Shown here: positions 8,161 through 64,000 of the stretch, in pieces
How the letters are laid out: every line of letters starts with the position of its first letter
Numbering within the stretch: the stretch's first letter is position 1
From: Styela clava
Taxonomy: Eukaryota > Chordata > Ascidiacea > Stolidobranchia > Styelidae
Direction: 5' to 3'
DNA: 64,000 nt
Assembly (NCBI RefSeq): GCF_964204865.1
Contig: NC_135251.1
Span: 18,910,001-18,974,000, forward strand
Notes under the pieces: generated by a model
The model's database searches: none
Seen by the model: only the letters and a program-made list of their open reading frames with translations
Told to the model about the DNA's origin: nothing
Program-made: the position numbers and the translations under genes

Positions 8161-8625
8161 ATGGGTGTCAATGGCTGGCAAAACAGACTGGACTTGCTAA
8201 TTAATCCTGTGGAGTTTGTTACTGAAACTGGTTCAGATGATACAGAGGGTGCAAAAAAGTTGAAAGAATCATCTAAATGCTCGTTAACTGGTGACGAAGC
8301 TAAAAAACTATACGAAGATATCATCAATGAACCTCTTGTCAAAGTTAAGAAGAAATCCATTGCTAAACACCGGTGTAAAAAGGAGAGAAAAGAAAAACAA
8401 TTGGTTCACTTGAATGATCAAGTCGAACAACTCACTGTGAATGACATGTTCAAAGCTGCCCAATGTGGGGATATAAAATCTGTTAAAGCTTGTATTTTGA
8501 AACACAAGTTGGACATAAATGCAACTGACCAGTACTCATGGACTCCTTTGATGATGGCAGCACATGAAGGTCATATGCATGTGGTGACGTTTCTTTTAAC
8601 GGAAGGAGCTAATTGGAAAGATAAG
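8161..8625 (+). CDS. GPANK1: GPANK1 exon 1
   Basis: Codes for residues 1-155, ending inside the ankyrin repeats at NWKDK. The frame continues beyond the donor only as read-through intron, to a stop shortly after 8680. The donor GTAGGT is a good consensus. Confidence 0.88.
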
Positions 8626-14310: not shown

Positions 14311-14685
14311 TTATATTCTCGAGTATATACCTAGTATTCCCTTGCAAGTAGGACATGTGTGCACAACATCTTTGGTTTCGTCGAACAGACATGGAAGCCA
14401 TGCTAGTAGTCCACATCCCGTCAGGCACAACACGCCAGCAACGAGCCAGGTAAATCCTCCGATTTCATGATGCGTCGCTGTTAAAACTTCATTACCACAA
14501 AGAGTGCAGGTACACTGTATAGGAAGGTGAGAAAACGCTTGAAGTTGGTATACGACACCTTGCGCAGCTGGTCTCGTTACAAAACGAGTATCCCCAGTGT
14601 TCTGAGGAAACTGGTAATTATTAGATTGATCATTAAATTTTGATCCCTCAACAAGGCTGGAGTAAGGTGGGGGATTCTGAGACAT
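14311..14685 (-). CDS. LITAF-domain protein (LITAF/CDIP1-like)
   Basis: The 124-residue protein is read on the minus strand from ATG at 14685. The N-terminus is Pro-rich with a PPPY motif (residues 5-8) of the type bound by NEDD4-family WW domains. The C-terminal half is a LITAF domain: CTCTLCGNE, then a hydrophobic stretch (about FTWLVAGVLCLTGCGLLAWL), then HTCPTCKGILG. The two CxxC knuckles bind one zinc while the hydrophobic segment lies in the membrane, so family members are monotopic proteins of late endosomes and lysosomes. Length and order fit a complete single-exon gene. Whether it is orthologous to LITAF or CDIP1 cannot be told. Confidence 0.9.
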   Translation of the reverse strand: MSQNPPPYSSLVEGSKFNDQSNNYQFPQNTGDTRFVTRPAAQGVVYQLQAFSHLPIQCTCTLCGNEVLTATHHEIGGFTWLVAGVLCLTGCGLLAWLPCLFDETKDVVHTCPTCKGILGIYSRI

Positions 14686-39700: not shown

Positions 39701-42700
39701 TTAATTGTGTGGTAATTATGCACTTTTTAAATACCATTTCAGTCGAAACAAGAAGATATTGAATTCATTTCAATGAATGATCGATTGCAGTAGCTTTTAT
39801 AACGTGATCTAATCTAAGTGATCTAATCAGTAAAATATAACCATTGTTATATAACAGCAATCATGCATGCCGTCGTATTTGGAAGCATCAACGCCATAAT
39901 TCAACGTATGTACGAAAAACGATCCGAGTACGACAGGAACGAACGAAATTTGAAAGATTTTATCCGCGCGCGTGGGTACGTGGGCTATAATATTTTTTTC
40001 ATGGTGTATAATATTTTTTATTATCATCTTGTTGTTTAAGTTACTTGGTCACTGAGATATAGAATACCTACAAGGCAAATTTACGTTCTTTGTAAGAATT
40101 TTCTAGAAATGTTTTCCATTTATCTTATAAACAGGAATCCAAGCTAGACAACCATGGTGTGTATTTGGCCCTTGAACCGAATACCTGCATTCTATGGAGA
40201 GAGCATTGCCTGTCCCAAGGTTGCCAAACAGGTTATTGCTAATGTGCAATTGTATTGTAATTTCCCATTACAAATCGTTTATTTATATGATATATATAGA
40301 AAAAATTACAAGTGTTTGTTTACAGAATACCGAAACCTCTGAAAACGAGAATGATTGAGACATTCCAGGCAAAATGGGCATTAAACAAAGGCGTCAATGA
40401 AGAACAGGTATAAAAATTTATATATTCAAAATCTAACAACAGTAAAGTTTGTAACCAGTTTAACCAACATCAAACTTGTGAGAGGTACATCTCATATGAT
40501 TTCAGGTATATAATATAATACTTTGTCACAAAAGTAATGTTGTCGCGCTTTAGATACATTGTAAGGTCATGTAATTCGTATCCAAACTCCTAAACCCCCT
40601 AAATTTTTTGAGTGCTTGTAAACTTGATTTGAGCATATTCGAAAGCAATAAATTGTCCTCAATTTAGTTCACTTTCTGAGCGCGAACAATCATTTAAACA
40701 TACATGGAATGTCTTCATTATGATATATATTTTGGCCGTTTGCAAATGTTTCAATGTTGTCGAGGGCTTAAATGAGATGCTAAGATGTATATTTTTATTT
40801 AATCCGAAGTGTCTAAAATATCAATTTTAAGTGCAGCCCAAATCCTTGATCGATATCAAGGGCCGGACTTCATAAATAATGTTTTGGAGTAAAGAACTCA
40901 TTGAAGTTTATCTTTTTTTTATTCAATCAATGATTGTGATTTGTTAATTTTGTAATTCTTCTGTATTCTTATTAGGTCATGAAACTTTTGCCTGATAATT
41001 TGAGAGCTGATGTGACAATGCATTTGCACAAAGACTTGCTGAATTTGCCTGTGTTCAAAAATACGGACCAGGTAATTGGGTAGTTTGTTTTACGTTATTA
41101 GCAGCAAACTACCGAAAATTTCAATTCATTTATTTGTGTTGATACCACGGTGTTGGTCCCATTAAATTGTGTCCAGTACAACAAATATGACTGGCTGATA
41201 GAGTGAGTGGCGCTAGCATGAAAAAGCTTCTGGCTGAGGCAAACCAGTGACAGCTTTATCTCAAGCGATGTTCATACAAAATTCTATAAGAAGATTATTA
41301 TAGCTTTCACAGTTGAAATTGAACCCATATGCTATATCCTATATAAATATAACCTATATAATAAACAAGTAGATTATATTTTGCAAAAGATGGGAAAACA
41401 GAAAAATTCGATTATACCGTTTATTCCCACATGTGGTATTTACATACTAAACAGCGGATATATTGATTAGATTTCAACATAAAATAAATTTTGTCCATTT
41501 ATTCAGCCATAATCATTCAAATTAAATCCTCTTTACCGAAAATTATTCATAAACCAATCATTAAACAAGAGGGCGATGCTCAAATATATCGAAACAGAGG
41601 TGAATGACTGATTTGACGATTTAAATCAGCTATTCTCCTATTTCAATCACTGTAGCTGACCTGGCTGAGCACGCGGGTTTGTCAGATGCAACACGTGACA
41701 CGTGTGAGCACAATATACGCAAACCCGAAAATTTGGGATGAATTGTTCGAATTTTGAAAAGATTTTTTAGCACTTTTCCAAACTGTCAAAGGACAGTTTT
41801 TTATTCTACTTAAACAACAGCAACTTTACAAACCGATCCATATATAAAGTTCGTTTCCAACAAGTAAGCAACAACAAGATTGTAAACTGTTCGAAAGCTC
41901 CAATCGATAAAAATTTTACCACCTATATATATATATATATTAACGAAAAAAAAACTATTTCTTCCAGGGTTGTAAAAGATATGTATCACTCCACGCAGGC
42001 AGAAGATTCATTTCTCCTGGTGATACCTTTGTACACGTTGGAGATCCACTGGAATATGTTTATCTCCTATGCAGTGGATCATTGGAAGTTTCTAGAAATG
42101 ACATAGTTTCGGCAATTTTGAGTGAGTTACCTGCAGTCAGTAAAAGTCTAAAATGTGTTTTCAAACGATTTTGAAGATTTCATCTACACAGAAAATAGTG
42201 CAATTGTTTTAGCGAAAATATCATAAAATAACGTATACTGTATATTATCGGAATACCTCCAGTAATGAAAACTGAAATAAAATTTCCCTCCCATCTTCTT
42301 TGAGAAGAAAAATAAATATAATTCATGTTATTACAGAAAATAATTTTTTTTAATGAGCATTTGTTATTTTTTTCGTGCAGGTAAAGATGATCTTTTTGGT
42401 TCTGACATTTTGAACGATAAGATACTTGTGTCATTTGCTAATGTGAAAGCTTTAACTTTCTGTGAAATACAATGTTTGTCAATAGAGGGGTTGAGAAAAA
42501 TCAAAGATTTGTATCCAGAACACTCAGACATCATTGATGAATTGAGGTAATACACAAAAATTATTGTATATTTTTTGCATATAATATAAGCTATGTAATT
42601 TTACAGCTATCTTCCTATCCTAATTTTTGTGAGCACATGTTTGAATTTTTCAAAAATTTGAATTTTTCAAAAATTGGACGTATAAATATGAAAGGTAACC

Positions 42701-45700
42701 AATATGAAAAATATTTGGGGACGACTAATACCCTGAATAATAAAGAAAATCGAGCACTAAAAAGAATATTAACAGCCTGATTTATTTGAATGAAAAGGCT
42801 TATTGAATCCAAATTAAAATAACAAGGTAATCGTAGCTACTTATTCTAACCATGGCGACATAAACTGACGTCGAATCGTATACGAAAAAGGCAAAAGGCG
42901 TGAATCCATCCAAAATGAACTGCAGCAATTCCATAAATACCACAAAATATAAATGTCATGAGTCCCGTCATCATAGGCGGACACATGAAGCTTTTGTATT
43001 TCAAGGCCACTGCTGAGTACAAAAATACAGAGTTAGATCGAGAAATTGTATATTCGTCAAAATATTTGAAGTATTTTTTCATTTTCCAGGGCTGAATTTT
43101 CGTGTCAACTTTGGGAGGAAATCATGCTGAATACAGAGGGTAAATTGTTTGTCTAGGGTTGAGGGTATTTCCGAATGCATTGGCTAAAACAGCGTGTCTT
43201 ACCCCAAAATATTTTACTAGAATCTTTTGAGTAAGCTCCAATAAAACAGCCAATAAACAATAAATTCCAACATGCTACTTCAGAACGACCTATTTTCACG
43301 TCACAAAAAAAACCTAAACATTCCTTGTTTGATTTTTAAATAATATATAATTGCTCTAATATATAACAATATGATATATTGACGAGAAACTTCTTTGAAA
43401 ATTTTTCAGAAATCGAGCGTCAGACAAAAATTGAGAGCTGGAACCAACATTACAGCTCTCAAGGTGATGTTGAAGATGACAGTGATAATTCATCCTGCGT
43501 TTTTTATCCAGCTGTTACTATTAATTTAAAGACTGATATAGAGAAGGACGTAACTGACCAGAAAAATGCATCGCCATTGCATCAAACTGAAAACAAAGAA
43601 GACGAGGAGAGTGAAGTGATCGACTCTAAAATAGGTATATTGAAACGTTTGGCAAGATTAACTCTCGACAAATTATATAGTGCATATTTGATTACATCGT
43701 TAATTGCATTGTGAAGTGGTATTCAAAAAAAACTGTGAGTATACTTAAGAGAAATACGCAATATCGTTTTCATTTTTATAGATGAAATGGAGCCACTGAT
43801 AAATTCAAATACAAACCCTACGCCTGCATCGGACGCACTGCCCAAAGACCAGAGTCTGGCAGATAAACTCAATACACAGAGTTTAAATGCGGGAGTGCTT
43901 CAAATTAAACGAAAATCATTCCAGAAGCATTCTGTAACGAACAATGATGGTAACTCGATTATTAATAATGTTTTATAGTTTTATTAATATAACCTTGTCA
44001 AGTAATATTTTTCATTAAACCTCAGTGTCGTAAAGTTTAAACAAAATTGAAAACATTCATCTTTTGAAAATTATTACTCTAACATACTTTTAAGAGCATA
44101 GAAAATTTTATTACTTACGGTGAACCTAAATTTTGCAATGGCCTTTTGGCCGCTAAAAAATACCCTCTTAAAATAAATTCGCTTCGGTTACACTGTAGCC
44201 CAATATCTCAATTTTGCCAGTAAAAAAGGTGCATCACTGTTGGACACTAAGAACATGGTGGTATAAAATATTAAAATACAGTATTTTTACATAACTTTTA
44301 ATATTTTTCAGCCATAACACCAGCATTTGGTTCCCGGTCCTGTTTCACGAAGAAAAAACAGAAGAAATCGGTGAAAAAGTAAGTATATTTAATTTACCAA
44401 TTTCTTAATAATACAAACAAACAATATTTTTTAATTTTTATACTTTCGAAAGTTACATTTGAATTACATAGCTATACTATTTTTCAGGAGAGTCAGTTTC
44501 CACGATTGTATCAGCGAAAACAGCGCGATTGATATTTCAAGAATAAGTCAGCTCTTGGGTAAAACTGGAAACTTGCGGTTAGTATCAGTTTGAACAAAGT
44601 GCATTGGAAAAAATCAAAACACTAAATGTTACAATTGTGAACATACTTGAAATAACAGCTTTGAATAGTTTGGGAAAAGAGAATTGAAGTTGCTGTTCAG
44701 TTAGCTTAACTAAGTTACCATCACTTGTTCAATATTTCAAGTCATATTCAGTCAATGATCCGCACGATGCTCACGTTATAAAATAGCAATGAACTGTATT
44801 GAATATGTGAACTAGACAGATGAATATGGTTTCACACACAGAAAAAGCAGGTGTCTAAGTGATGTCGTAGGATAATGTTGGGCTTTGTAATTAAATGAGA
44901 TGTTGTATCCAATACCTTTCGTGGCCTTTCATCATCCTCATTAAAAATATTTTTATGTCTGTGGGTGCTTACACTATTCGCATATTGATTGATTTTGTAA
45001 TATAATCATATCTAGTGATACCATATTCGAGGAAGCTTCAACAACCGGACAACGGTCTGAATGCAATGGAGCTGTAAGGTATGTTCGACATTGAATTTTA
45101 TATTGCTTATTTCATATGTAAAAATTATCATATATTATTGCTGTTTTATTTCAGCACAATTCTGAGTTGAAAAAGAAACAAGACGCAATTTTAACTCTCA
45201 TATATATTGTAGAAAATTAGCACATTTGTGTTCAATTATGTCTCATAACTATTTACCATGTCGCCCAATCAAATTAAGTAATTTGTTTTGAACTACAGTC
45301 GATTCACATGGGCGTGATGGCCTAGCTGTTAAAACGGTGGGCTTCAATGTGTTGGCCGTGCAGGTTAAACAACTCGAGTTTAATTAAACCCCAAATCCAC
45401 GATCTCAACGAAGGTGTGATGAATTGTGTATTGTAGGCAATCCCGAACCGGAGAGGTTTCGGTGCTAGGAGGATTAGTCGTGAATAAGCATCGTATAGAA
45501 AATATCACTGCTGATTTAAGATATATTTTCTAGAAACCCAGGTGCGTTTCGTCCAACTTTAGAAGAAACCTGTCTGAAACCCGGGGGCCAAGGATCGAAA
45601 ACACGATCACCCCAGATAAAAAGACGATTGAGGATACGCACTACAAATGACTTGTCTGACCTATCAGATAGCGATCGAATAAACTTCTTGCCACGAACCG

Positions 45701-48700
45701 TGAGATACATACGAGACATGAAAAAACATAACGAGGACATTGCACATGGGGTCGGAAATTCACCTGCAACTGCAACAGAGGGCAACAAACCTTTTGACAT
45801 TCCCACTTGTACTTCGATCTCCAAACCAGCTGGAACAGCTGCATTTACACAATCTGAACCAGACTCTAATCTAATATGCGAAGGTAAAGGATTTCATACT
45901 CGGATAAACGAAGTCGAGACAGAAGTAGTAGACGAAATAAATGAAAATAAGGGTAATAATTTTAATTTTGATAATAATGAGTGATAACAGGGAAACAATA
46001 ACTGGTCTTTGAGTCTGGGTGTTGTCCCCGGTACGATTAAACGTACTTAAGCCTTAGCGGAATAAATCCCAACTGAACTCTATCGGGGGTAAAAAAGCAT
46101 ACACTAGATCGCAATGACAAATCTTCCTGTATTGTAAAGTTGCGAGATAGAATTGAATTGTTCCAAATATATAGCGAAAGACAAAAAAAAAAACCTCAAT
46201 ACAGTATACGGCTGAAATCTAAATTACGAGATTAAACTAGAAATAATAAAACAAAGACGAGCAACTCTTGAGCGACAGTAGAAAATACGGCATCATCTTT
46301 TTCGCATTAAACATTGCATGAACATTCGGGCAGCGACTTTAGTACAGGAAAATACTATTCGCTATTAGCAATAAGAGGTTAAAAGCATTGAAATACACTT
46401 TACATACCCTCATTTACTAGCTAGAATATACTAGCTATAATACTTAAAAGTTTATTATAATACAAGGTTGTAATGAAAAAATTTCTCAAATATCCTGATT
46501 TCAGAAAAAAAAAACGTTACATTAACAAAAACAGTCGTTGCAGGTTACATCCATCACCCATGTGATTCTTGTCATGTCCATTACGGTTTAAAATATTCTT
46601 GCTTATTGAATTGAAGGGATCGTAAAGACATCGAGTGCCAGTCCACCGTACTTTGGAACAATAGCAGGTTTGAAAAAAAGAAGACGCCGTAGGAAGGTTA
46701 CTCAGCGACAATCTGACAAGGATGAAAGTTCAACATCTGCCGTAGAGGAAGGTTTGTAATTAACTAAAATGGCATAATAATGAGCAATTTATGTATTGTA
46801 GAAATTGGCAGTTTGCCAAAATTTGTATTCACCAACAGTACTCATAGGTAGAAAAGGTATTTAAAAGTATTGCCATAAGCGACCACTTTTATAGACACAG
46901 AAGGCTTCTAAAGATATTAAAGGCTATGGTACTACATAACTACGGGCTCTGCAAAAAGATGCCAAGAAGTGTTAAAGCCAAGAAGAACTAACTATTTGCT
47001 CGATGACGCTGACAAAAGTGCCAAAAAACGTAATGCTTACCACGGCATTCATCTTCTCGAATGATGCTTTTTTATATATATATATATTTGTAGTTTTCGT
47101 CGATAGGGTTGGTAACGGTCCATACATATACTGCCAAGAATATGCATATACCGCCAATTCATATACATAAACAGTTAACCAAATATACATATACTGCCAA
47201 ACACATATGCATATATAGCCAACCCAATATACAAATACAGCCATTTAGGTGGAGTACAAGTACTGCCAGATCCTTTCATAAGAATGCAAGATATATATAT
47301 ATATATATATATATGTATATGCGGTTGCATCTACGAGTTATATGCACATTACGATACATAAAATATCCGCAGATTCAAGCAGATAGACAGATATATGGCA
47401 AGTCGCAACCAATAACATAATACCCCACAACAGCTGGTCGTTCAAATAATTAGTGCGTTAAGACATACAACTGCCGGTGCGCGTGGTTCTTGATAGATAG
47501 ATGGCACCAATCTGTGATGTCATTGTACACCTCAACAGCTCATTTTGGATAAAATGAGAAATGGAATGCTGGCTGAAAATCCTTTTTCAGTGAAATATTC
47601 TTCGGCTATTGGCTATAAACTGTCCACAAACTAATCAAATTAACGTTTGGCGGAAACAATCATTGCACCCTTGCAGTTTGTTACATTCAAAACGCGTCCG
47701 CCATAGTATTCTATTGAATGAGGCTACTCTCGTTACGCTTACAGAAAACCGCTTTTGATTGAAATATGAGAAATGACTTGTAACAAGCCTAAAGAATATG
47801 AATAAAATATCATGATATAAGCACCATTCGGCGGCAAGCCTACCTTGGTACAGGCAAATACCATTCACATTAGTAATAAGTGGTTAAAATGATTGAAATA
47901 CACTGTATGTATCTTCATATACTAGCTACAATACTTTTAAAGTTTGGGGAATGGATGCAACTTTTGTTAAATATCATAATACAAAGTTGTAATGAGAAAA
48001 TTTCTCAAATCTCCTGAATTTCAGAAAAACGTTACATTACAAATTACATTTGTTGTAGGTTTCATTTATCACCCACTGTAATTCTTGTCATGTGTATGAC
48101 TTTTTAAAATATTCTTGCTTATTGAATTGAAGAGATTGAAAAAACATCGAGTTCTAGTCCACCGTACTTTGGAACGATAGAAGATTTGAAAAAAAGAAGA
48201 CGCCGTAGGAAGGTTACTCAACAACAATCTGACAAGGATGAAAGTTCAACATCTTCCCTAGAAGAAGGTTTGTAATTAACGAAAATGTCAGAATAATGAA
48301 CAATTATTTAATGTAGAAATGTACGGTTGGTAACGTCCCATACATATTATACTGCCATGAATATTATGCATATATCGACAACTCATATACATATACAGAC
48401 AACCAAATATGCTGCCAAAGTCATATGCATATATCCAACTCAATATACAAATACAGCCATTTAGGTGATGTACAAATACTGCCAGATATTTCATAAGAAT
48501 ACAAGGTATGTATATGCGGTTGCATCTACGAGTTATATGCACATTACGATAAATAAAAAATTCGCAGATCCAAGCAAATAGACAGATATATGGCAAGTCT
48601 CAATCCAATAACATAATACCCCACAACAGCTGGTCGTTCAAATAATTGGTGCGTTAAGACATAAAACTGCCGGTGCGCGTAGTTCTTGATAAATGTACAA

Positions 48701-51053
48701 TAGGCACATATCGATGATGTCATATTACCCCTCAACATTTCGTCTTGGGTAACATGAGAAATGTGCTGGCTGAAATTCTCTTCTCAGTGAACTATTCTTT
48801 GGCTATTTGCAATAAACTGATCAAACTAATTAATTAACATTTGGCGAAAACTATCATTGCCCATCTTGCAGTTTGTTTAATTCTAAACGCACCGCCATAG
48901 TATTTTGTTGGATGAGGCTACTCTCGTTACAGCTTGTGATTGAAATATGAGAAATGACTTGTAACAAGCGTAAAGTAGAAGTAAAAAAATTTCATGATTC
49001 AAGCTCCATTCGCCGGTAAGCCTATGCATACTGTTTGCGCAACATAAGACATAAAAATCGTCAGTGAGCGTTCTTGATAAATGTCACAAAAGTTCTTGAT
49101 AAATGTACAATATGTACCAATTTATGATGTCATAATACCTCACAGCAGATCATCGTAGATAACACGAAAAATGTGCTGGCTGAAAAAACTATTCTTTGGC
49201 TGCTGGCATTAAACTGTCCACAAACTAATGGCTTTGTTTAAGAGACAAATTACTTCCCGACGCAGATAAGAACATCAAGTTGTTGTCAAACTGGGTTATG
49301 CCATGACGACAAAAATGGCTGTAGCAAATTGGTAATATAACGTGGTTTAGCGTGTGTAATTTCTATGCTCATTGCTATTTGCTACATAGAATACTTTGAA
49401 GTGTTTTTTTATTCCATCATATATGAGTGACATACCTTATTTACGCAAAGCAGATGTACCGGATACGGCATCATCGCACAAAGTCAGAAGGCCATCAGTG
49501 GTTGAAATGAAACATACTCGCGAGAGAAGTCCAAATAGTAGGAAACAACAGCAAAGACAAAGTTGCTACGACGAAATGTGTTCGCGACACTGCAATTCAC
49601 AACTCGAACAACTGAAAGAGAAGTTCGATGATTTGCAAAATGTGGTAGGGTTCGCTTTGAAACAAAGAACATTTTTATGTTCATCTGTAATTGTTGCATA
49701 TTTTATTTCGTCCTCTCTGTACTTTGTTCTTCTCAGGTGGTTCAAATGAAGAAAATAAAAAGTACAATACCTTTTTAGTCGTCATAATCATTTTATTTCT
49801 TGCAATTCGACAAATTACTATTTTGTAAAGCAAAAATTTCGTAATGGTATTGAAAAGTTAGTATGATTTTAGAGCCCTGCAATAAAGGCTCTCATTCCAT
49901 TTTTTCAATATCTCTGAACAAACTTTGAACCCAATTTTACTAATAAAAAATTCCATAGAATCTTCGAATTTAGATTCTCACGTAACGTGAATGGCATCAT
50001 TTCAAAACATACACCGTCACGAATATTGCGTATTTTATATTATAGTATTTGTATCTAATTCAATTTTTCCAGGTGATGCAGATTTCAGTCAACATGAAAG
50101 AAGTGTTAACCACTGTAAAGGAAATGACATCAAACAACCCCGATGAGAGATATATCAGAAATACAGCCCCGAAAGAAAAACGAGAGATACAAACTGATGA
50201 AAATTTATTGGTAGATCAGCGTCTACAATATGGTTATAGTCGGTCACATTCCAGCCACAATTTGCGTCAGTCAGGTTTTAAAGGAATGACGCCATTGCCC
50301 AAATGGTCATCAATGGAAATTATGAAAATACCAATAAAGTCTGAAAGGACACCATGTGAATATTACCCGCAATCCAACGTACGGCGGCACAGCACAGGTG
50401 TTTTTAACAGAGAGTATCCGATTGAACGTTCGAAAGATCAAGGTTGGACACAGTATGAATCGGCAAACTCCTCATCGGCTTCACGACGTTCCAATCATAT
50501 TTGCGCCAATTTAAGGCGACTAAATGGCTTCCAACACGTAGAAAGGCCGTCTCAAATATCTACACAGGCCGGGGGAGCGCACGCATTGTCTCAAGAAAAC
50601 ACTTCGATGCCGGAGTTTCTTCGGGCGACCAGACATGATGAAGCAATTCTGCTTTCACCGACTTGTTTGCCACCGCCATCTTATACTTTACGGTCATCGT
50701 CAAATACAAATTTTTTAGGCTCGTCATCACATGAGATTAATGCAACAACAACACATTATGAGGACAATGGTAATTGCCGCCACATTTCATCACCATTGAT
50801 CAACGACTCGTTATGCTCGTTTCAAACTGACCCATCACGATGTCAATATGGTATTCCTATTCCTAACTCCATCCCGATGTTGACAGTGAGCACTTACAAT
50901 AACACAAATGAATGCAATCCTGCTCTTCCCAAACCACAAGTAGTGCAGCAAATACCGGGTAATCATCTCACTATACCCATGACACAACTAGGTGGAGGAT
51001 GTGAAAGTGGATACAATACATCGAGTCCTTCCTTCGAAATGTGCTTCCCATGA
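32013..51053 (+). CDS. ELK-subfamily voltage-gated potassium channel (KCNH family), 25 exons modelled, first coding exon missing
   Basis: Exons: 32013-32113, 32552-32684, 33614-33787, 34976-35133, 35214-35384, 37160-37295, 37710-37870, 38609-38831, 39092-39286, 39858-39975, 40326-40407, 40976-41071, 41968-42121, 42381-42546, 43090-43139, 43410-43634, 43782-43949, 44312-44378, 44488-44577, 45016-45078, 45534-45952, 46617-46751, 48133-48267, 49451-49644, 50073-51053. All junctions are GT-AG and phases agree throughout, giving 1,530 residues; vertebrate ELK channels have about 1,000-1,100. Order: PAS (1-120), [14 protein letters not shown] linker, S1-S6 with filter SVGFGN (459-464), C-linker (IPKPLKTRM), CNBHD (583-700), long tail. 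MHAVVFG and IIQRMY after the pore, and GSLEV in the CNBHD, favour ELK (KCNH3/4/8) over ERG or EAG. It is a plasma-membrane K+ channel. The PAS exon needs an upstream exon ending in phase 1, not found. Confidence 0.9.
33240..33277. mobile_element. Solo hAT-type right end in a KCNH intron
   Basis: GGCGTGCCATAGGTTGCCGACCACTG reads as a hAT end (inward CAGTGGTCGGCAACC). I did not find its partner in the same intron. Confidence 0.45.
34976..35384 (+). CDS. KCNH (ELK) exons 5-6: PAS-S1 linker and S1
   Basis: Exon 5 (34976-35133) carries [19 protein letters not shown], a linker motif conserved in ERG and ELK channels, followed by a Ser-rich segment. Exon 6 (35214-35384) carries a short pre-S1 helix, then [20 protein letters not shown], the S1 helix, and the start of the S1-S2 loop. 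Confidence 0.88.
35385..37159. other. KCNH intron with hAT insertion
   Basis: The intron between S1 and S2 exons. About half is the hAT element at 36099-36944. A GT-rich run near 35660-35710 precedes it. Nothing else is recognisable. Confidence 0.6.
36099..36944 (-). mobile_element. hAT element (family E) with transposase C-terminus, in a KCNH intron
   Basis: Ends CAGGGTCGGTCAACC and, read inward, CAGGGTCGTCCAACC, with GCGGGCCAC motifs near both ends and an exact 8-bp duplication TTCTAGAG (36091-36098 and 36945-36952). On the minus strand near 36440-36300 it reads [20 protein letters not shown], matching the end of the hAT dimerisation region (typically D.HL...LRIA.S...PDI). The element is internally deleted at 846 bases. 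Confidence 0.92.
37160..37870 (+). CDS. KCNH (ELK) exons 7-8: S1-S2 loop, S2, S3
   Basis: Exon 7 (37160-37295) has the extracellular loop with three N-glycosylation sequons in NASNNTNGT, then S2 ([15 protein letters not shown]). Exon 8 (37710-37870) has [14 protein letters not shown], the conserved S2-S3 linker, and S3 ([16 protein letters not shown]). The acidic residues in [10 protein letters not shown] and FIVD are the expected voltage-sensor counter-charges. The intron between contains a diverged family-A MITE fragment (CTACTGGACCAATTACTGTG near 37433). Confidence 0.88.
38224..38430 (-). repeat. tRNA-derived SINE in a KCNH intron
   Basis: On the minus strand from about 38430: TGTGGTTAAAGTGTTGGA (box A type), then CTCCGGCTCAAATCC (box B type) about 45 bases later, then a non-tRNA body with ATAAACCTGGGAATCTTTAC. 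This order and spacing suit a tRNA-headed SINE. A target duplication was not identified. Confidence 0.55.
38609..39286 (+). CDS. KCNH (ELK) exons 9-10: S4, S5, pore
   Basis: Exon 9 (38609-38831) carries S4 ([14 protein letters not shown], regularly spaced Arg/Lys) and S5 ([20 protein letters not shown]). Exon 10 (39092-39286) carries the turret with one N-glycosylation sequon (NNT), the pore helix YFTLSSLTS, the filter SVGFGN and the start of S6 ([12 protein letters not shown]). GFG is the potassium filter variant of EAG/ERG/ELK channels. The turret is much shorter than in vertebrate ELK channels. Confidence 0.92.
39858..41071 (+). CDS. KCNH (ELK) exons 11-13: distal S6 and C-linker
   Basis: Exon 11 (39858-39975) continues S6 with [17 protein letters not shown]. 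Exon 12 (40326-40407) gives [20 protein letters not shown]. Exon 13 (40976-41071) gives [20 protein letters not shown]. These are the C-linker helices that couple the CNBHD to the gate and they match ELK most closely. The residue before IPKPL is read as Gly (GG|A across the junction), where relatives usually have Arg or Gln. Confidence 0.88.
41566..41600. mobile_element. Family-A MITE end fragment in a KCNH intron
   Basis: CAAGAGGGCGATGCTCAAATATATC matches the CAAGAGAGC end of the family-A MITE. The following 350 bases are too diverged to align by eye, and the other end was not seen. Confidence 0.4.
41968..43139 (+). CDS. KCNH (ELK) exons 14-16: cyclic-nucleotide-binding homology domain
   Basis: Exon 14 (41968-42121): [19 protein letters not shown], then [12 protein letters not shown] and VSAIL. 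Exon 15 (42381-42546): KDDLFGSD, then [20 protein letters not shown] and LYPEHSD. Exon 16 (43090-43139) continues after DEL with [12 protein letters not shown]. In KCNH channels this domain does not bind cyclic nucleotides, because a C-terminal strand (YNL or FNL) fills the pocket. Aligning [14 protein letters not shown] to the vertebrate pattern puts CQL (residues 694-696) at that place, so the aromatic residue is replaced by Cys. Confidence 0.85.
43410..45078 (+). CDS. KCNH (ELK) exons 17-21: proximal C-terminal tail
   Basis: Five small exons (43410-43634, 43782-43949, 44312-44378, 44488-44577, 45016-45078) encode a low-complexity tail rich in Asp, Glu, Ser and Asn. A basic patch ([18 protein letters not shown]) spans exons 19-20. 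RVSF resembles a basophilic kinase site or a PP1-docking RVxF motif. All junction phases agree, which supports the exons although no domain is recognisable. Confidence 0.72.
45311..45500 (+). repeat. tRNA-derived SINE-like sequence in a KCNH intron
   Basis: GGGCGTGATGGCCTAGCTGTTAAAACGG resembles a tRNA-type box A region. The expected box B (near GAGTTTAATTAAACC) is degraded. A body with CCCGAACCGGAGAGG follows. It ends about 30 bases before exon 22. Confidence 0.4.
45534..45952 (+). CDS. KCNH (ELK) exon 22: tail
   Basis: The 139-residue exon begins after ttttctag. It includes a basic segment ([16 protein letters not shown]), an acidic [10 protein letters not shown], and a polar segment ending [10 protein letters not shown]. 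There is no known domain. The exon is kept because it is open throughout and its phases (in from AG, out with G) fit its neighbours exactly. Confidence 0.7.
46617..46751 (+). CDS. KCNH exon 23a (first copy of duplicated exon)
   Basis: The 135-bp exon, phase 1 to phase 1, encodes [20 protein letters not shown] followed by [17 protein letters not shown]. The acceptor is ttgaag and the donor is GAAG|gtttgt. The Lys/Arg cluster KKRRRRRK could be a nuclear-localisation, phosphoinositide-binding or RxR-type ER-retention signal. Being a multiple of three and phase-symmetric, it can be included or skipped without changing frame. Confidence 0.72.
47105..47320. repeat. CATATAC minisatellite and AT dinucleotide run
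   Basis: Degenerate repeats of about 20-24 bases built on CATATACTGCCAA run from about 47120 to 47250, followed by an AT dinucleotide run near 47289-47313. The related block in the second unit is 48335-48480. The frames crossing it are rich in Tyr, Thr and Ile and are not genes. Confidence 0.7.
48133..48267 (+). CDS. KCNH exon 23b (second copy of duplicated exon)
   Basis: It has the same length, phases and splice sites as exon 23a. It encodes [20 protein letters not shown] and then [17 protein letters not shown]. All differences from 23a keep the frame open; about eight residues change, several of them conservatively. Both could be used in tandem or alternatively. Confidence 0.72.
49451..51053 (+). 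CDS. KCNH exons 24-25: coiled coil and Ser/Pro-rich C-terminus
   Basis: Exon 24 (49451-49644) ends with [14 protein letters not shown], and exon 25 (50073-51053) starts [18 protein letters not shown]. Joined in phase 0, they form a heptad-like coiled coil, as found at the equivalent place in KCNH tails. About 300 residues rich in Ser, Pro, Asn and His follow, ending SFEMCFP at the stop. The exon 24 acceptor was put at cgcaaag|CAG because only this start matches phase 1; an alternative at catag (49390) is out of phase with exon 23. Confidence 0.78.
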
Positions 51054-53367: not shown

Positions 53368-54776
53368 CGGAAATATGTTGAGCAGTAGCACCGAGTTCGC
53401 AAAATCAGAACGTCACGCTCAGTGGAGTAAAAACGGTGTTCCCATTAATAAAAATCAAAAAGCCAAATTTTGGATAAAATATCGCATCTCATAGAATTCG
53501 TAAAAAATTTAAGAACAAATAAAGTAAGTGTAATAGCCTTCTAGTGACAATAACAATCTTCAACAACTGAGGATTTTGATAAATTGGTCCAGTAGTTCGC
53601 CGTCGCTGGTATAGGACACAGCTCTTAAAGTAGAGTTCACGTAGCGCTTCATTTTCTATAATTGCTGTTTGGGTTATTCTCATAAAAATTCATCGCGTTT
53701 TCTTTTGTTGTAATAGTTTGAGATTCTGATTTTCTTCTGCAATATAAAATTGATTGCAATGAACAATGAATGGAAAATATTACACTAGAAAAAGCCTTGA
53801 TGAAATATAAAAAAAAAACAAAAAATTGTAAAGAAAGAAGGTGCTATCCATTTAATCTGGTTACAATACATTTAGAAATAGATTGGTAAAAGAAAAAAAC
53901 TTGAGAAACTGGTTTTCAAACACTTGGACTCTTTTTCAATGGTGGATGGGAGTACCCATGCTTTCAATTTTTGTATAGCGTTAGAATTGGGTCTGTGTGC
54001 GTGTCTATTTAGTTATATTGATAAAATAAATCAAATTGGAGATGCCTAGATTGAAACACATTGCTACGTATATCTATAACGATAAGTGGCTATCTATAAT
54101 ATTGAACTGTGAATTATTTTTTCATTTTATAATATATTATCTGATCATTCAAATTAAACCAGAGCATCGGGATCGGTAAGACTGAGCTAACGGCCGAGTC
54201 TGTTGGAAAAATGGCGGATTAGCCTGACGATCGAGCGATAGGTTAAAAAATGAGCAAAAAAACAGCACAGTGCATAAGAGGGGTTTTAAATGTAAATTGT
54301 GGAAAAACAAGTTTTTTGAGTTGTAGAAAACTTTGTTTTATGACCCGAACTCTACCAAAGGGTTCGAAAATTGACGTATCACCATAAAAAGTGTAGGTAA
54401 AATCCGAAAGCAATGACACTTGGCTTAGTGACATGTAGTCAATTGATTATCACTCCCGACTTCTAATATGTTTTGCACTTCTGTAGGATATGGACACATG
54501 AATAATAATTGTTATTGCTATAACTTAACTGTATAGTCTCTTAAATATGTGAAAGGACATATTTTTTTTCAATTCGCACTTTTTGAGTTGAGGTATATAA
54601 TATTTTTTTCTCAACAGATTTATCTGGGATATTTCAAATGGAAATGAGTTTCTTTTCAGCTTCTCACACACTAGCATATTGAAATATTTACATTTGTAAA
54701 CTTAAATACAATCCTGAACCGTAGGTTCAAATATTTGTTCAAATAAGGCAAATTGCAACATAAAAAATGAACGTAC
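51827..54776. other. Non-coding; fragments and low complexity
   Basis: No supported gene. A purine-rich block at about 52620-53050 repeats GAAATCAGC.ACTA.CCC and GTGAAAATACA motifs two or three times. An AT run lies at 53338-53366. A diverged minus-strand family-A MITE fragment (AATAGCCTTCTAGTGAC ... AATTGGTCCAGTAGTTCG) lies at 53530-53620. Confidence 0.5.
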
Positions 54777-55461
54777 TTTCTTTTGATAACCAGACATCCA
54801 ACGATAGTTATAACCACAACAAACACCAACATCACCATCAGAAGTCCAATTACTGAAGCCCATTCCGGAACAGTTAGAAAATCTTCTTCCGACATTGTGG
54901 TCGCATCTGTTGATGTTAGTAATTTGTTAAAGGTGTTCTAATGAACTTTTATTCACCACATCGCCAACCACACTGGCCAAAAATGTAGGCTTCGTCATAA
55001 TGTTAAGTAATGGTATCGTCCTTTTTTAAATATGTATACGCAGCAAATCATATCATATTTATCGTACGCCACTAGATATGTCCCGCACACTGGACAATTG
55101 TTCTACGCGCTAACTTTTCAAAAACGTTTGCACTAAAACGACCAAAAATTTTCCGAGGTCAATGATGGTTGACAACAATAGCCCGTCCAATTCAACTGAA
55201 AATGTAGAATTTTTTAATCATGTCCTCCTTATACACGACTTTACATCTGAGTCCCAACATAGATCTGAAAATATTATTACTACACTGCTCAACGTCATCA
55301 AAAATATAGTATGGTGCTATAAATGGTGTGTGTTGGAAATATGTTGTTACCTTTTTGATCGTAAACTACTGTTTCTGTTCTTTCTAAATTATAAATTCCA
55401 GTTTCTTCAGCAGGGTTAGTTATGGCGAAAACAGCCATCCTCGGAATCATGATATACTTCG
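54777..55461 (-). CDS. Unrecognised minus-strand membrane protein, two exons seen (partial)
   Basis: Two minus-strand exons join in frame: 55461-55351 (acceptor gtgcag, donor G|gtaaca) and 54906-54777 (acceptor caacag, donor AA|gtacgt). They encode MIPRMAVFAITNPAEETGIY, then ERTETVVYDQK, D at the junction, ATTMSEEDFLTVPEWA, then a 25-residue hydrophobic helix (SVIGLLMVMLVFVVVITIVG) and CLVIKRK. Hydrophobic helix followed by basic residues fits a type I single-pass orientation. Exons upstream and the cytoplasmic end were not found. It might instead be a degenerate gene. The exon-phase match is the main support. Confidence 0.45.
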
Positions 55462-58459: not shown

Positions 58460-61400
58460 ATGGGGATTGTTTTCTGGATGAAGATATTTTTAATAGCACA
58501 AGGTATGTAATACTTGTTATTGTTATCAACCACAGTGTGTGTTTGTAGATCGGTAACTTGGGATAAGATCATTCACTTTCAGTTTCAAATAGAACCTTAA
58601 TTTCCACTCCGATTCTAAGAGTCATGTCAGGTCGGGAATTGAATGGACTTTGTCTTGGTATTGAGGAGATGTCTGTTTCAAGTAAAGAAATACTTCCAAA
58701 TGTTAGATATATTTCCACGACATATATATATAGGTCATAGCATCATTGTTTTCCACAAGCATGGCGCTTTTCTTTTGTAGATTGCTTTGATGAAAAATGT
58801 GTGGGAGCTATTTTCTATCAGCGTTAGTAATCAGATCAAGGATGAAAACCCTACTGCCATGAAATAATGTTTTTTTACAGGACTGACTTCTGGACATGCG
58901 AAGTGTCTGCAAAAAATATCTTCTACACGCATAGAGTTGTACACAACTGACAGATCGAAAAACTGCATTTGGTCCACTAAGATAATTGCTTCGAATGACA
59001 AAGTTCTAAATATAACTATAACAGAACGAGTTGGAGGAAAATCGTTGGTTCTTTTCGGTGAGGAAAAAAAGATCGAACAGTATTTGCAAATATGTTCTCT
59101 GGCATCGAATACAAAAATTAGTTATCTCTATGTTCGTAACAGGCAATTTCTGTAAAGAAATATGCCGTTTGTGTTATATTTTGAAGAGATGCGGATAAAG
59201 ATGTCTTTTCTATTCTATTGAAGGGTCTTGCTGCACACCGAAACAAATGTAACACACATGTACACGGAATTACATTATGTTAGTGTACAGCAAGACTCAT
59301 GAATTAAATAGAAGCCTTACATATAGGAGTTGCCACTTGCGCATGGCTTTGTTTGGAGCGAAGGCGTACGACGTTGTTAGAATATATATTGTTTGAGGAT
59401 GTATATAAAGTAAAGTATTGTTAGCGGGTGTTCAATCAGATTACGGAACTAGTTTTACGGATGCCATTATCACATTTCCCACGCTCAAGTATAGGAAATG
59501 ACATATGTTATCTTGTTACACTTGACCACACGATTTAAGCTTTCTATGGATATAGACTGATACTTGATTAGGCATTTAGTGCGCTTGATTTCTCTCCTAT
59601 TAGTTTCCTAGTTCGAATTTCAATCAGCAAATACAATCAATTATGCATGACGCACTATTTCACGTGGCTAGTGATTTGTGCAAACTTGGGGCCAAAGCTT
59701 GAGTCGACGCTCAAGAATAATTATTGATTTTATTGAGATATGATAATTTTTTTTATCACATGGGAGGAAAACAAATATTTTGACAACACTTTTGTCTGTT
59801 TGGCCTCCCAAATCGAGTATGAAAATAGTCAAACGATTGATTGTTCCAAATGTATGGGTGTGGATGGCAAAAGAGAACGTTTCTTTATTATTTATAAAAT
59901 TCAAACACTTCAAAAGCAACGATATTGTTTAGTAAAGATTTCATGTTTGAGAGTTGAACTCGACAAAATGGACCCAACCTAAGTACGAGAAGAATAATTT
60001 AATTCTGGAGTTATTGTCTAAAAAGTAATTGAAACGGAAATAAACCTATACGGATCTATTAGATCGAAATATTTAGTGGCTTTCAATGTTTGCAGCCGCC
60101 AGGAAGTTATTATAATTTTATTTATTGAGTGAATATAGGGCCCATCATTTCACCAAAACTGTTTCTCTTGTTTCAAATGATGATAGTTTATAAATGCTTG
60201 TCTGGGAATCTTGGTCAGACTAAGGGTCGAGGAAATAACATTGTGTTAGTTCGTACAAGATTTTAAATCCCTTTTGTAAAAATCGCTTTTATTCCAATTG
60301 CTCCTCAGGGAATCCGATGATAACAATGAATAAACGATGCTTCATCGTCACTCCTCCCGGTACCCGCTGTGTCTTTACGAATACAACCTCATGTGATATC
60401 TTGAAGAAAAAAGACAAATATATCTCTTTTCGTACGGCAAACGTTGGGGACAAACTAGTGTTGCATACCGAACATGTTGATGATTGTCAGAAGACGGAAG
60501 GTATATTGACTTTTCTTGTGTTGTATATGAATCGCGAAAAACAATGTAAATGTAAATACTATAAGTAATATTGAGTATAAAATCATTATGAGCGTCATTA
60601 GAAAACGAGTATTAAATATAAGATCAGACAGTTACAATTTGCAGAATTATCTCATAGCAGGATAAGTAAAAATGTTAGATTCAGTGACCGTTTGCAGAAG
60701 TATCCGAATGAAACGAAGTACGAGTATCGGTACGCACTCATTGGCGACCATTGGAATAGTCGGAATATTCAAATAAAAGTAATTTGCTCGCTTTGCTACG
60801 TCTGCACCGCCTTTGTGACTATGGATCAGTCACACACAGACCTTAAGTTTGTACAACATGAATGAATATTACATTAATGTTATTATTATATCAGGTACAA
60901 ACACAACTATTAGTTCATTCTTCACCAGTCTCCGTCCAACCACAATGAGAATAAAAAGCACAAGACATCAAGAAACAACTGCAAAACAAGTCAAGGACAG
61001 TTCAAGTAAGTTTCCTCTTTCAACCAGATATCAAGACGCTGATTGTGACTCTTGGCCTAATTATATGTTGATGATCGAACTAACCTGGATTTACATGTAC
61101 CAGAGTCTACATTTTGGGGGCATTTGTCGGTACCAACCATAATAAGCCCCACTTTATTTTCATTAAACAGCAAAGAGTTCTACAACGAAACATGAGGAAA
61201 AGAGCATGATGAATATTCCGGAAATCAAACCTCGAATAAATCCACACAATGTAGTGACTCAACGTGCTTTCTCAGAATACGACACTAGCAATGCGATAGT
61301 TCGAATGCCAGAACAAGGTAAGAAGATAGCGGATACATGTCCCCTTGTCGACATTTTATTGCAGTATTAGTCACGAACAACTAAATGTAAATGATATGAA

Positions 61401-62954
61401 CTTCATACTACAATGGTCTATTAAAAAGGCCTTAAATATCATTAGCAAATAATTGAAATTCAAAGGAGTTTTTTTGTTTACATTCCGCGAATTCATTTTT
61501 ACTAATTTGTCTTGATATAATTTAGGTATTTCAACAATGACTATAATTATATTATGCGCTGTTGGATCATTTCTCATCATCATCGGTGGACTTATTGCCG
61601 TCTGTATAATTAAACAAAGGTAAATTTGTAAATGTATTTTTTGCTCGAATCTGATATGATCGCAGCTAGTTTAATTGCGATCAAGCATTTATAGGCCCAA
61701 AGCACTCACGACTTTGGTGCCTTACATACAAAGAATCATAGTAAGAGGAATGTAACTGGTTTTCCGTGTTAACTGAAATTGAAAGGGTAAGTTTCAGTAT
61801 ATATTCATTACTGATTGATGGCCAAATAATTCATTTAGATGATATTTTACCCCAAGCCAATACCTTCAGTGCAATCGAATATCAATAGGATTGAAATTAT
61901 GGTGAAATGCTATTTAAACATTAAAAGGCTGACGCTTTTTAACAGTATTGAAGTTACGGTGAAATGCCATTCAACCGTTCAACGACTGACGTTTTTAACA
62001 GCATCGAAGTTATTGTGAAATGCCATTTGAAGTTTATCGACTAACGCTTTTAAACAGTATTGAAATTACTGCAAAATGCTTTTTAAACATTCAACGACGG
62101 ATGCTTTTTAACAGTATTGAAGTTACGGCGAAAAAATGCTAGTCGAACGTTCAACGAACCGATGTTTTTCAACAGTAATGAAGTTACGGCGAAATGCTAT
62201 TTAAAAGGTCCAAGGCTTGAGCCCCCTAGGCTTCAACCTACCTTGACTAATGGTAAACACGACCTGGTTCAATTTTCTATATATATTTCATACATTCCAT
62301 CTGATGCCTAATACGGTTTCATGCAATTTCCTTTACCATACCAAGCGTATACCAAATAAAGTCGCACACATTTATATAGAATACATCTGTTCGATATTTT
62401 TAACAAGTGCTTCAATGGTAATTTTCAGGCGACAACCACCTAAATGGAAAAATAGAAATCCACACATTTCGAGAACTACTTCAATTGCTTCTGTGTGCTT
62501 TGCACCGGAGAATCCTGATCGTGTCTACGAGTCAATTCATTCTAAAAGGAATCGAGAAAGAAATAACACCGATGCAAGTACTCAATCACAATCATTATAT
62601 GTAGAAATGGCGGCGACAGGATATAAACAACGAAATGTATATGCCAGCGTGAAATTGTACTCAACACCATATGAGAATATACCGGAAAATCCATCTCACA
62701 CATCACACAGACTCGATTCAGGTTACATCATTCCAGAGTATCACAATGATACGTCGTTACCTTATATAAACATGGGAATTGTTATAAGAAACGAACTCAC
62801 TCGACAATCAACATATGTAGATATGTCGCAGACGTCTGTGCCGAAGTCACCTAATTCATCAATTGTCGAACCGCGATATGTCAACTTGCTGTCAAGCTCA
62901 AGCGCTGATAAAGCTCAATCTAATATTTACGAAAATTCTAATTCGAGCAAATGA
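58460..62954 (+). CDS. Unrecognised type I membrane receptor with multi-phosphotyrosine-motif tail
   Basis: Likely exons: 58460-58502 (signal peptide MGIVFWMKIFLIAQG), 58881 to about 59135, 59738 to about 59970 (end uncertain), 60309-60500, 60895-61005, 61171-61317, 61526-61619 and 62429-62954. From 60309 on all phases agree. Extracellular exons 2-4 contain paired Cys and a CUB-like C.W pattern (NCIWSTKIIASND ... LNITITE). Exons 5-6 are a Ser/Thr-rich stalk. Exon 7 is the transmembrane helix (TIIILCAVGSFLIIIGGLIA) followed by KQR. The last exon encodes about 175 cytoplasmic residues with tyrosine motifs YESI, YVEM, YASV, YENI, YIIP, YINM, YVDM, YVNL and YENS. YxxM recruits PI3K p85 and YxN recruits GRB2 when phosphorylated. 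I do not recognise the family; an adhesion or immune-type receptor is an inference. Confidence 0.62.
58881..59135 (+). CDS. Receptor candidate, extracellular exon 2 (CUB-like)
   Basis: Continues the signal peptide in phase (G|GA). Cys-containing: AKCLQKISSTRIELYT, then KNCIWSTKIIASND, LNITITERV (an NIT sequon) and QICSLAS. C...C.W.I.A....L.I.I is reminiscent of the first half of a CUB domain, but no full CUB could be assembled. The donor is read at TATGTTC|gtaaca; if unused, the frame ends in a stop at 59155. Confidence 0.5.
59738..60500 (+). CDS. Receptor candidate, extracellular exons 3-4
   Basis: Exon 3 starts after attgag at 59738 in the required phase and encodes TFVCLASQIEYENSQTIDCS, then a KCMG segment and YKIQTLQKQRYCLVKISC; its donor is ambiguous (possibly TTTCAT|gtttga). 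Exon 4 (60309-60500) encodes RCFIVTPPGTRCVFTNTTSC (an NTT sequon) and VGDKLVLHTEHVDDC. The even, paired Cys suggest disulphide-bonded domains. The join between the two is the weakest point of the gene model. Confidence 0.45.
61526..61619 (+). CDS. Receptor candidate, transmembrane exon
   Basis: A 94-bp exon between ttttag and AG|gtaaat encodes ISTMTIIILCAVGSFLIIIG, GLIAVCIIKQ and an Arg completed by the next exon. One hydrophobic helix of about 24 residues followed by basic residues is a textbook stop-transfer segment. Confidence 0.65.
61889..62210. repeat. Minisatellite, ~57-bp unit, six copies
   Basis: ATTGAAGTTACGGTGAAATGC or variants recur at about 61889, 61948, 62003, 62059, 62116 and 62177, each followed by AA.G.TCAACGACTGACGCTT-like sequence and TTTTAACAGTATTG. 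It lies in the intron between the transmembrane and tail exons of the receptor candidate. Units differ at 10-20 percent of positions by eye. Confidence 0.85.
62429..62954 (+). CDS. Receptor candidate, tyrosine-rich cytoplasmic-tail exon
   Basis: The acceptor is attttcag, and the AG|G phase matches the transmembrane exon. The exon encodes RQPPKWKNRNPHISRTTSIA, then at least twelve tyrosines in spaced SH2-type motifs: RVYESI, SLYVEM, NVYASV, TPYENI, SGYIIP, LPYINM, STYVDM, PRYVNL and NIYENS. It ends SNSSK. No kinase or other catalytic domain is present, so signalling would need recruited partners. Confidence 0.68.
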
Positions 62955-64000
62955 AAAATACAGAACTAAGCTATAACGAGAAAAAAAGATTGAAAGTGTC
63001 TCATCCAGTCTATTCCGTAGTAGACGAAAAAAATAAAAGACATTCACGCGTTTCCTGTATAAAAAAAGTATATATTATTATTATTTATTTCATGTTAGTT
63101 AGCAGCCTATCTGACTGTTGCAGTCGAAATTGTTTTTTACAGTTTCTTAATGCAGACTGTAACATGCATATTATTCTTGTGTGTAAGTAAAATTATCTGA
63201 TAGAAGATGTATGTATCCTACGCCGAATTGCGTAGAAGAAAGAAGTGCAAGTAAACCAGTTAAAACGTTGAAAAAATGAAACATTTTAGGTCGGATTTAT
63301 GGTCAGAATTTGGCCTCTAACATTTTTCTAGGTAATAAGTTGAGAGTTTAACTTAACTGATAGGTGTGAGCCAAGTTTGGAATATTCTTGATAACTTCAA
63401 AATGCTTATATGAGTTTTCATTGTAGTCATCGTGGCCACTATTCTCGATGATGTTGCGCCGAGTAAGATTCAATAAATTTACCCACCATCTAACAATAGC
63501 CAACAAACTTCCGAAAAAGTTGTCGCCGATTTTTATTTGTATTATCTAATTAAGCCAGAATTGAGCAATAGCCATCGCTAGTCCTGACCTAACCAACCTG
63601 AGAAGCGATTGAAGTATTTTAGAAACTATGGTCGTCGGGTATTGTCATTGCGACATGTTTCCCAATCTAACCTGATAAAATTAAAAGAGCGATGGCTTGC
63701 CTTTTGTTTGTCATTGCTTATTCGTTAACGTACAACTCAACTACAACACATATAAATTAACACCAAGCAAGCAGAATCCACTCACCTAACCCGTAAATAT
63801 ATGCCTAACCTGGTCGTCCAGGCGATTCGCGAATGTTATGAGCCTGCTTGTCATTTCAACCATGATTCCTTCAAGCTTGAATACCGTAGACTCGTAGAGG
63901 ATAAAATTATGTGCGCGTTTATGTCTGAGTTAAATTTTTGCTGATATTTGAATTCGGATTATGAGACTCCGGTCACTCACGAGTTGCGAGTAATTAATTT
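62955..64000. other. 3' flank of the receptor candidate
   Basis: No recognisable gene. A frame starting in the ATGA overlap (62951-63190) contains HPVYSVVD and is discussed among the findings. A candidate poly(A) signal AATAAA is at 63472-63477. Confidence 0.45.
63472..63477 (+). terminator. Candidate poly(A) signal
   Basis: AATAAA on the plus strand, 518 bases after the receptor stop codon. Usage is unknown. Confidence 0.25.

What the first reader, a model, noticed from the sequence alone, without database searches (positions are those of the whole stretch)
58460..62954. Orphan single-pass receptor with a dense array of SH2-docking tyrosines
Signal peptide, Cys-containing ectodomain, Thr/Ser stalk, one transmembrane exon, and a ~175-residue tail with three YxxM motifs (YVEM, YINM, YVDM) plus YENI, YVNL and YENS (YxN) and YESI/YASV (YxxI/V). 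Such a tail is built to recruit PI3K p85 and GRB2-type adaptors, as in IRS or CD28-like systems, yet I recognise no ectodomain family. In an invertebrate, a co-stimulatory- or allorecognition-like receptor is conceivable. The tail and transmembrane exons are read directly; the signalling role rests on known SH2 preferences; the biological role is inference.
Basis: partly seen in the sequence, partly recalled or inferred. Interest (0 to 1): 0.82.

Follow-up and report, generated by a model that had tools for sequence, protein, structure and literature searches.

The report
Sea squirt orphan receptor, tyrosine-rich tail
A sea squirt gene encodes a cell-surface protein whose inner tail carries many likely docking sites for signalling proteins used by immune and growth-factor receptors; the gene looks real, but its outer part matches no known family and its biological role is untested.

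Summary
The gene is as described. Seven coding exons on the + strand (58460-62954) join into a 429-aa type I membrane protein, letter-identical to NCBI's "uncharacterized protein LOC120336083 [Styela clava]", a sea squirt. The 175-residue tail has 12 tyrosines: 3 YxxM, 5 YxN, 2 YxxP and 4 Yxx[ILV]; 11 of 12 fit at least one class. Composition-preserving shuffles reach the YxxM count in 0.026% of 100,000 trials and the 11-of-12 count in 0.001%. No ITIM, ITAM, NPxY or kinase domain. The ectodomain (6 Cys, S/T-rich stalk) has no Pfam match above cut-off, CUB, Ig and sushi included; PDB gave only transmembrane peptides at E 0.4. Three protein searches returned only the protein itself, so motif conservation is untested. 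Most likely it is a PI3K/GRB2-recruiting scaffold receptor that works like CD28, DAP10 or LAT without belonging to those families. An immune role is only a hypothesis, though a review reports LAT and SLP-76 not found in ascidians.

The parts
58460..58502 (+). Coding exon 1: start and hydrophobic signal-like segment (MGIVFWMKIFLIAQ), phase 1 donor
   Evidence: Donor AAG|GTATGT; in-frame stop upstream at 58427
58881..59057 (+). Coding exon 2: ectodomain part 1 (residues 15-74, Cys 23 and 43, sequon N58)
   Evidence: 177 nt, phase 1-1; part of NCBI protein P0001
60309..60500 (+). Coding exon 3: ectodomain part 2 (residues 74-138, Cys 84, 94, 102, 133, sequon N98)
   Evidence: 192 nt, phase 1-1
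60895..61005 (+). Coding exon 4: S/T-rich stalk (residues 138-175, 42% S/T, sequon N140)
   Evidence: 111 nt, phase 1-1
61171..61317 (+). Coding exon 5: membrane-proximal stalk (residues 175-224)
   Evidence: 147 nt, phase 1-1
61526..61619 (+). Coding exon 6: single transmembrane helix (residues 224-255, no charged residue in the core)
   Evidence: Hydropathy; helix 227-254 in the AlphaFold2 model, pLDDT 85-89 at residues 231-250
62429..62954 (+). Coding exon 7: cytoplasmic tail (residues 255-429) with 12 tyrosines, and stop codon
   Evidence: Motif counts and shuffles
63032..63037 (+). AATAAA, candidate polyadenylation signal 77 nt after the stop codon
   Evidence: Pattern match

Best explanation
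The gene encodes a type I plasma-membrane receptor-scaffold of Styela clava. A small, probably disulphide-bonded and beta-rich ectodomain on an S/T-rich stalk binds an unknown ligand or partner (inferred). Clustering lets a cytosolic tyrosine kinase (Src, Syk or Abl type) phosphorylate the tail, since the protein has no kinase domain of its own (no Pfam kinase match: shown; which kinase: inferred). Phosphorylated YVEM, YINM and YVDM then bind the SH2 domains of PI3K p85, and YENI, YINM, YVNL and YENS bind GRB2/GADS-type SH2 domains. YSTP and YIIP could bind CRK-type SH2 domains. The result would be PI3K and Ras/Rac signalling at the membrane. Sequence features are shown; every binding and signalling step is inferred from SH2 preferences established in vertebrates.
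For: Hand-built seven-exon model identical to an NCBI protein. The four exons between the first and the transmembrane exon are symmetric phase 1-1. Single TM without charged core residues, so signalling through its own tail is the simpler reading (inference). All 3 Met of the tail sit at Y+3: P 0.00026; 9 of 12 Tyr in YxxM, YxN or YxxP: P 0.00001. Highest YxxM|YxN count (7) of 235 stop-to-stop ORFs of at least 60 aa in the window, next best 3 (all but two of the others are shorter than this one). Residues 1-224 have 3 Tyr and no YxxM or YxN. Passages read: p85 SH2 binds pYxxM (PMC7982423), Grb2-family SH2 binds pYxN (PMC6669380), DAP10 YINM binds p85 and DAP10 also binds Grb2 (PMC5852076), DCBLD2 YxxP binds CRKL (PMC6029619). 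PI3K, Grb2, GADS, Crk, Src and Syk family homologues are reported in Botryllus ampullae (PMC12065747 section 12).
Against: No orthologue was found, so there is no sign of selection on the motifs. Phosphorylation, surface expression and ligand are unknown. The motif classes were chosen after seeing the tail. Seven of the tyrosines also fit the endocytic YxxPhi pattern, and TPYENI (Y336) fits the TxYxx[VI] switch motif of SLAM-type receptors (1 seen, P 0.09, class recalled), which would allow SHP-2 or SAP instead. The ectodomain model is unreliable (mean pLDDT 38.9).
Confidence: 0.6

Rival explanations
1. Endocytic or sorting receptor: the tyrosines are YxxPhi signals read unphosphorylated by AP-2/AP-1, so the protein is a scavenger or recycling receptor rather than a signalling scaffold.
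For: 7 tail tyrosines fit Yxx[MILVF] against 2.2 expected, P 0.0013. Y288 ESI lies about 34 residues from the end of the TM helix.
Against: Such receptors usually need one or two signals near the membrane (my knowledge), not seven spread over about 120 residues. The pattern does not explain why Met takes 3 of the 7 Phi positions, or the YxN enrichment (P 0.0023).
Confidence: 0.17
2. Fast-evolving lineage-specific gene whose tail tyrosines are mostly not functional: low-complexity, Tyr/Asn/Ser-rich sequence from an AT-rich genome.
For: No relative returned by three searches; coding GC 34-43% by codon position; 12 Tyr and 17 Asn in a 172-aa stretch of the tail.
Against: The shuffles keep that composition and still give P 0.0003 to 0.00001 for the YxxM and combined classes. 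A clean seven-exon structure and an independent annotation argue for a real protein.
Confidence: 0.13
3. Immune or allorecognition receptor in the narrower sense (a special case of the best explanation): expressed in haemocytes or epithelia, polymorphic ectodomain, activating co-stimulation.
For: A related ascidian, Botryllus, has type I receptors with tyrosine-motif tails encoded in the fuhc locus (PMC12065747). The tail has motif types found in DAP10, CD28 and LAT (CD28 YxxM recalled).
Against: No Ig or sushi match, no ITIM or ITAM, no paralogue returned. The neighbours that I could name are a potassium channel and ordinary cellular genes, none an immune receptor. No expression or polymorphism data.
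Confidence: 0.1

Closest known systems
DAP10 (HCST) / CD28-ICOS co-stimulatory tails
   Same: YxxM for p85, and the same four letters YINM as DAP10, which PMC5852076 (passages) reports to bind p85; DAP10 also binds Grb2
   Different: Tail of 175 residues with 12 Tyr instead of a short tail (length of theirs recalled); ectodomain about 200 aa without an Ig match; no charged TM residue for pairing. Details of CD28/ICOS recalled
LAT and the transmembrane adaptors TRIM, SIT, LAX
   Same: Several pYxN sites on one membrane-anchored tail; LAT has three (PMC6669380 passages); TRIM has a YxxM (PMC7982423 passages)
   Different: A real ectodomain with 6 Cys; no CxxC after the TM (LAT's CxxC recalled); LAT is described as lacking conventional YxxM, this tail has three
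DCBLD1/DCBLD2 scaffolding receptors
   Same: Transmembrane scaffolding receptors with multiple tyrosine motifs phosphorylated by Fyn/Abl to recruit an adaptor (PMC6029619 abstract and passages)
   Different: [quoted passage not shown] here 2 YxxP and no such domain
Botryllus fester co-receptors (FcoRs)
   Same: Ascidian type I receptors, long tail with tyrosine motifs including YxxI/L/V (PMC12065747 section 11)
   Different: FcoRs are 520-610 aa with IgV, sushi and two Ig domains and can encode ITIM/hemITAM; this is 429 aa with no Ig or sushi match and no ITIM
IRS/GAB/DOS docking proteins
   Same: Multi-YxxM and YxN docking array (recalled)
   Different: Those are cytosolic with PH/PTB domains (recalled); no such match here

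Membership tests
CD28/ICOS family | Ig V-type ectodomain | tested here: not met
   No Ig family listed by Pfam with the limit at E 10 (HMMER's filters drop most matches above about 0.1)
CD28/ICOS family | YxxM p85-binding motif in the tail | tested here: met
   Y312, Y367, Y384
CUB-domain receptors (incl. DCBLD) | CUB domain in the ectodomain | tested here: not met
   No CUB hit for the spliced protein or an exon-2-extended form (same filter caveat). A C-x18-NCxW start looks CUB-like by eye only
DCBLD1/2 | Seven or eight intracellular YxxP | tested here: not met
   2 YxxP, not enriched, P 0.22
Botryllus FcoR | IgV, sushi and two Ig domains | tested here: not met
   No such Pfam hit; description from PMC12065747 section 11
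Botryllus FcoR | ITIM, hemITAM or a core Y-x-x-I/L/V in the tail | tested here: inconclusive
   ITIM 0; Yxx[ILV] 4 against 1.9 expected, P 0.10; no GYxxL (hemITAM core, recalled) seen on reading the tail
LAT-type transmembrane adaptor | Several pYxN sites on a membrane-anchored tail | tested here: met
   5 YxN, P 0.0023
LAT-type transmembrane adaptor | Minimal ectodomain and juxtamembrane CxxC (recalled) | tested here: not met
   About 200-aa ectodomain; in TM and tail Cys only at 234, 250 and 278
IRS/GAB | PH or PTB domain, cytosolic | tested here: not met
   No PH or PTB match; one TM helix
Any of these | Phosphorylation-dependent binding of p85, GRB2 or CRK | not testable with these tools
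   Needs phosphopeptide or cell assays
Any of these | Motif conservation in orthologues | tested here: inconclusive
   No relative returned; the method needs shared 5-residue words

The most novel reading that the evidence does not exclude
Ascidians are reported to lack LAT and SLP-76 although GRB2, GADS, PI3K, Src and Syk relatives are reported in one of them. This protein may be a receptor that carries a LAT/CD28-like docking array in its own tail, so that the scaffold step of immune-type signalling is built into the receptor. It would have a new ectodomain family, perhaps peculiar to styelid ascidians.
Probability: 0.1. Interest if true: 0.8.

Novelty: new variant of a known kind. Interest (0 to 1): 0.42.

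Why it matters
If the tail binds p85 and GRB2, tunicates, the sister group of vertebrates (recalled), would have a receptor that couples directly to the co-stimulation pathways (PI3K, GRB2) without a separate adaptor. A review reports that LAT and SLP-76 homologues are not found in Botryllus or other ascidian genomes (PMC12065747 section 12). How ascidian tyrosine-motif receptors connect to those pathways is therefore an open question, and this gene is a concrete, cheap candidate to test.

Tried and rejected

Exon 2 and exon 3 as duplicated modules: they look alike by eye (DKVLNITITERVGGKSLVL / DKYISFRTANVGDKLVL), but P is 0.11-0.20 in four comparisons against 2,000 shuffles each; not supported.

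CUB domain: looked plausible by eye, no Pfam support. WH1 (E 0.04-0.08, below cut-off, over 27 residues, in the ectodomain) and DUF1918 (E 0.34, extended form only) judged chance. The two PDB hits (ErbB2 TM peptides, E 0.38 and 0.4) are TM-on-TM similarity.

Structure prediction without an alignment was poor for the whole protein (mean pLDDT 38.9) and for exon 2 with its in-frame extension (41.2). I ran no fold search, because such models give meaningless matches.

Relatives: the whole protein (E up to 1), residues 218-429 and residues 15-145 (E up to 10) each gave only the protein itself, from 1814, 316 and 55 candidates. A cis-paralogue search by tblastn in the window gave only the gene's own exons below E 0.5; the best other hit has E 0.76.

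Papers: LOC120336083 is in 0 papers of the library. The other nine searches listed no paper on this gene, as far as titles and abstract starts show; some searches listed only part of what they found (25 of 183, 8 of 19, 15 of 24, 15 of 159, 10 of 15, 8 of 26).
Full report
What is there. The region 58460-62954 (+) holds one gene with seven coding exons. All six introns start with GT and end with AG; exon 1 ends in phase 1, exons 2-5 are all phase 1-1 (177, 192, 111 and 147 nt), and the transmembrane exon joins the tail exon in phase 2. The joined coding sequence is 1290 nt including the stop and gives 429 aa. An in-frame stop at 58427 lies upstream of the ATG, and AATAAA begins at 63032, after the stop codon. 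A search of 5.77 billion proteins returned one protein, identical over 429 of 429 residues and named by NCBI "uncharacterized protein LOC120336083 [Styela clava]" (2 member sequences, one contig of 31.3 Mb). I spliced and typed the query before seeing that record, so the two models are independent. NCBI's may itself be a prediction; no call shows whether it has RNA-seq support. The host is thus Styela clava, a stolidobranch ascidian of the family Styelidae; that it is solitary is recalled.

Anatomy. Residues 1-14 are hydrophobic and signal-like (no signal-peptide program was available; AlphaFold2 puts a helix at 2-24). Exons 2-3 (residues 15-138) hold six cysteines (23, 43, 84, 94, 102, 133) and two sequons; exon 4 is 42% Ser/Thr with a third sequon. 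The only strong hydrophobic stretch is at 223-255 and has no charged residue in its core. The tail (255-429) has 12 tyrosines: YESI 288, YVEM 312, YKQR 320, YASV 326, YSTP 332, YENI 336, YIIP 354, YHND 359, YINM 367, YVDM 384, YVNL 405, YENS 422. Only YKQR fits no class that I counted.

Chance. Shuffling the tail, which keeps its composition, gives 3 or more YxxM in 0.026% of 100,000 trials, 5 or more YxN in 0.23%, 9 or more tyrosines in YxxM, YxN or YxxP in 0.001%, and 11 or more in any of these or Yxx[ILV] in 0.001% (an earlier run on 172 residues agrees). YxxP alone (2, P 0.22) and Yxx[ILV] alone (4, P 0.10) are not enriched. ITIM, ITAM and NPxY patterns are absent; one TxYxx[VI], TPYENI at Y336, was counted (P 0.09). 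In one search an acidic residue at Y+1 or Y+2 was only mildly enriched (5 against 2.1, P 0.04). Among 235 stop-to-stop ORFs of 60 aa or more in the window the ORF with this tail has 7 YxxM|YxN and the next best has 3, though all but two of the others are shorter. The classes were picked after seeing the tail, so these P values are optimistic. The plainest one (all three Met at Y+3) still survives a tenfold correction.

Relatives. The whole protein, the TM-tail part (218-429) and the ectodomain (15-145) each returned only the protein itself, from 1814, 316 and 55 candidates. The tool needs shared exact 5-residue words, so a diverged orthologue could be missed. I could not search the window's own genome (five requests not answered).

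Family tests. Pfam with the limit at E 10 gave only sub-threshold WH1 and, for the extended form, DUF1918; no CUB, Ig, sushi, PH, PTB or kinase family was listed (the filters drop most matches above about E 0.1). PDB gave only ErbB2 TM peptides at E 0.4. The AlphaFold2 models without alignment are too weak for a fold claim. The whole-protein model has only strands between residues 33 and 131; the model of exon 2 with its extension has three strands and, in the extension, a helix.

How it probably works. p85 SH2 domains bind pYxxM (PMC7982423 passages). Grb2-family SH2 domains bind pYxN, and LAT carries three such sites (PMC6669380 passages). DAP10's YINM, the same four letters as Y367 here, binds p85, and DAP10 also binds Grb2 (PMC5852076 passages). 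DCBLD2 shows that a receptor with many tyrosine motifs can be a scaffold driven by Fyn and Abl (PMC6029619 abstract and passages). By these preferences the tail should recruit PI3K and GRB2-type adaptors once phosphorylated. I put this at 0.6. The main rival is a sorting receptor, because seven of the motifs also fit YxxPhi (P 0.0013).

Context in ascidians. A 2025 review (PMC12065747; abstract, sections 11 and 12 and passages read) describes Botryllus FcoRs, type I receptors whose tails can encode ITIM, hemITAM or YxxI/L/V motifs. It lists PI3K, Grb2, GADS, Crk, Src and Syk relatives in the ampullae, and states that LAT and SLP-76 homologues are not found in Botryllus or other ascidian genomes. 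The present protein shows none of the FcoR ectodomain types, but its tail carries docking classes that LAT and CD28 carry in vertebrates. That makes the most novel reading worth a test; nothing here shows that the protein is immune.

Verdict. Observation confirmed; molecular interpretation reasonable but untested; immune or allorecognition role unsupported. It is a new variant of a known kind (multi-motif scaffold receptor) with an unrecognised ectodomain.

Noticed in passing
59058-59155 +: Past the exon 2 donor the frame stays open for 31 further codons (EEKKIEQYLQICSLASNTKISYLYVRNRQFL) to a TAA. Retention of intron 2 would give a short secreted form of the ectodomain start.
   Followed up: partly
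61890-62205 +: Intron 6 contains a 57-nt tandem repeat, 5.5 copies, 76% matches.
   Followed up: no
54671-54937 -: Minus-strand ORF with a strong transmembrane-like segment (EWASVIGLLMVMLVFVVVITIVGCLVIKRK) between the channel gene and this gene; no Pfam hit at E 0.01. Possibly an exon of another single-pass protein.
   Followed up: partly
38567-51053 +: Exons of a KCNH (ERG/EAG-type) potassium channel: PDB match to KCNH2 E 2e-14, Ion_trans/Ion_trans_2. The long ORF 50046-51053 has no Pfam hit and may be its C-terminal tail (inference).
   Followed up: partly
6199-6972 +: ORF with a histidine phosphatase domain (E 3.9e-32), TIGAR-like by memory.
   Followed up: no
8122-8688 and 11574-12263 +: Ankyrin and G-patch ORFs, together resembling GPANK1 (recalled).
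   Followed up: no
14311-14709 -: LITAF-like zinc ribbon ORF (E 5.5e-20).
   Followed up: no
2238-2681 -: zf-RVT match (E 2e-8): probably a remnant of a non-LTR retrotransposon (inference).
   Followed up: no
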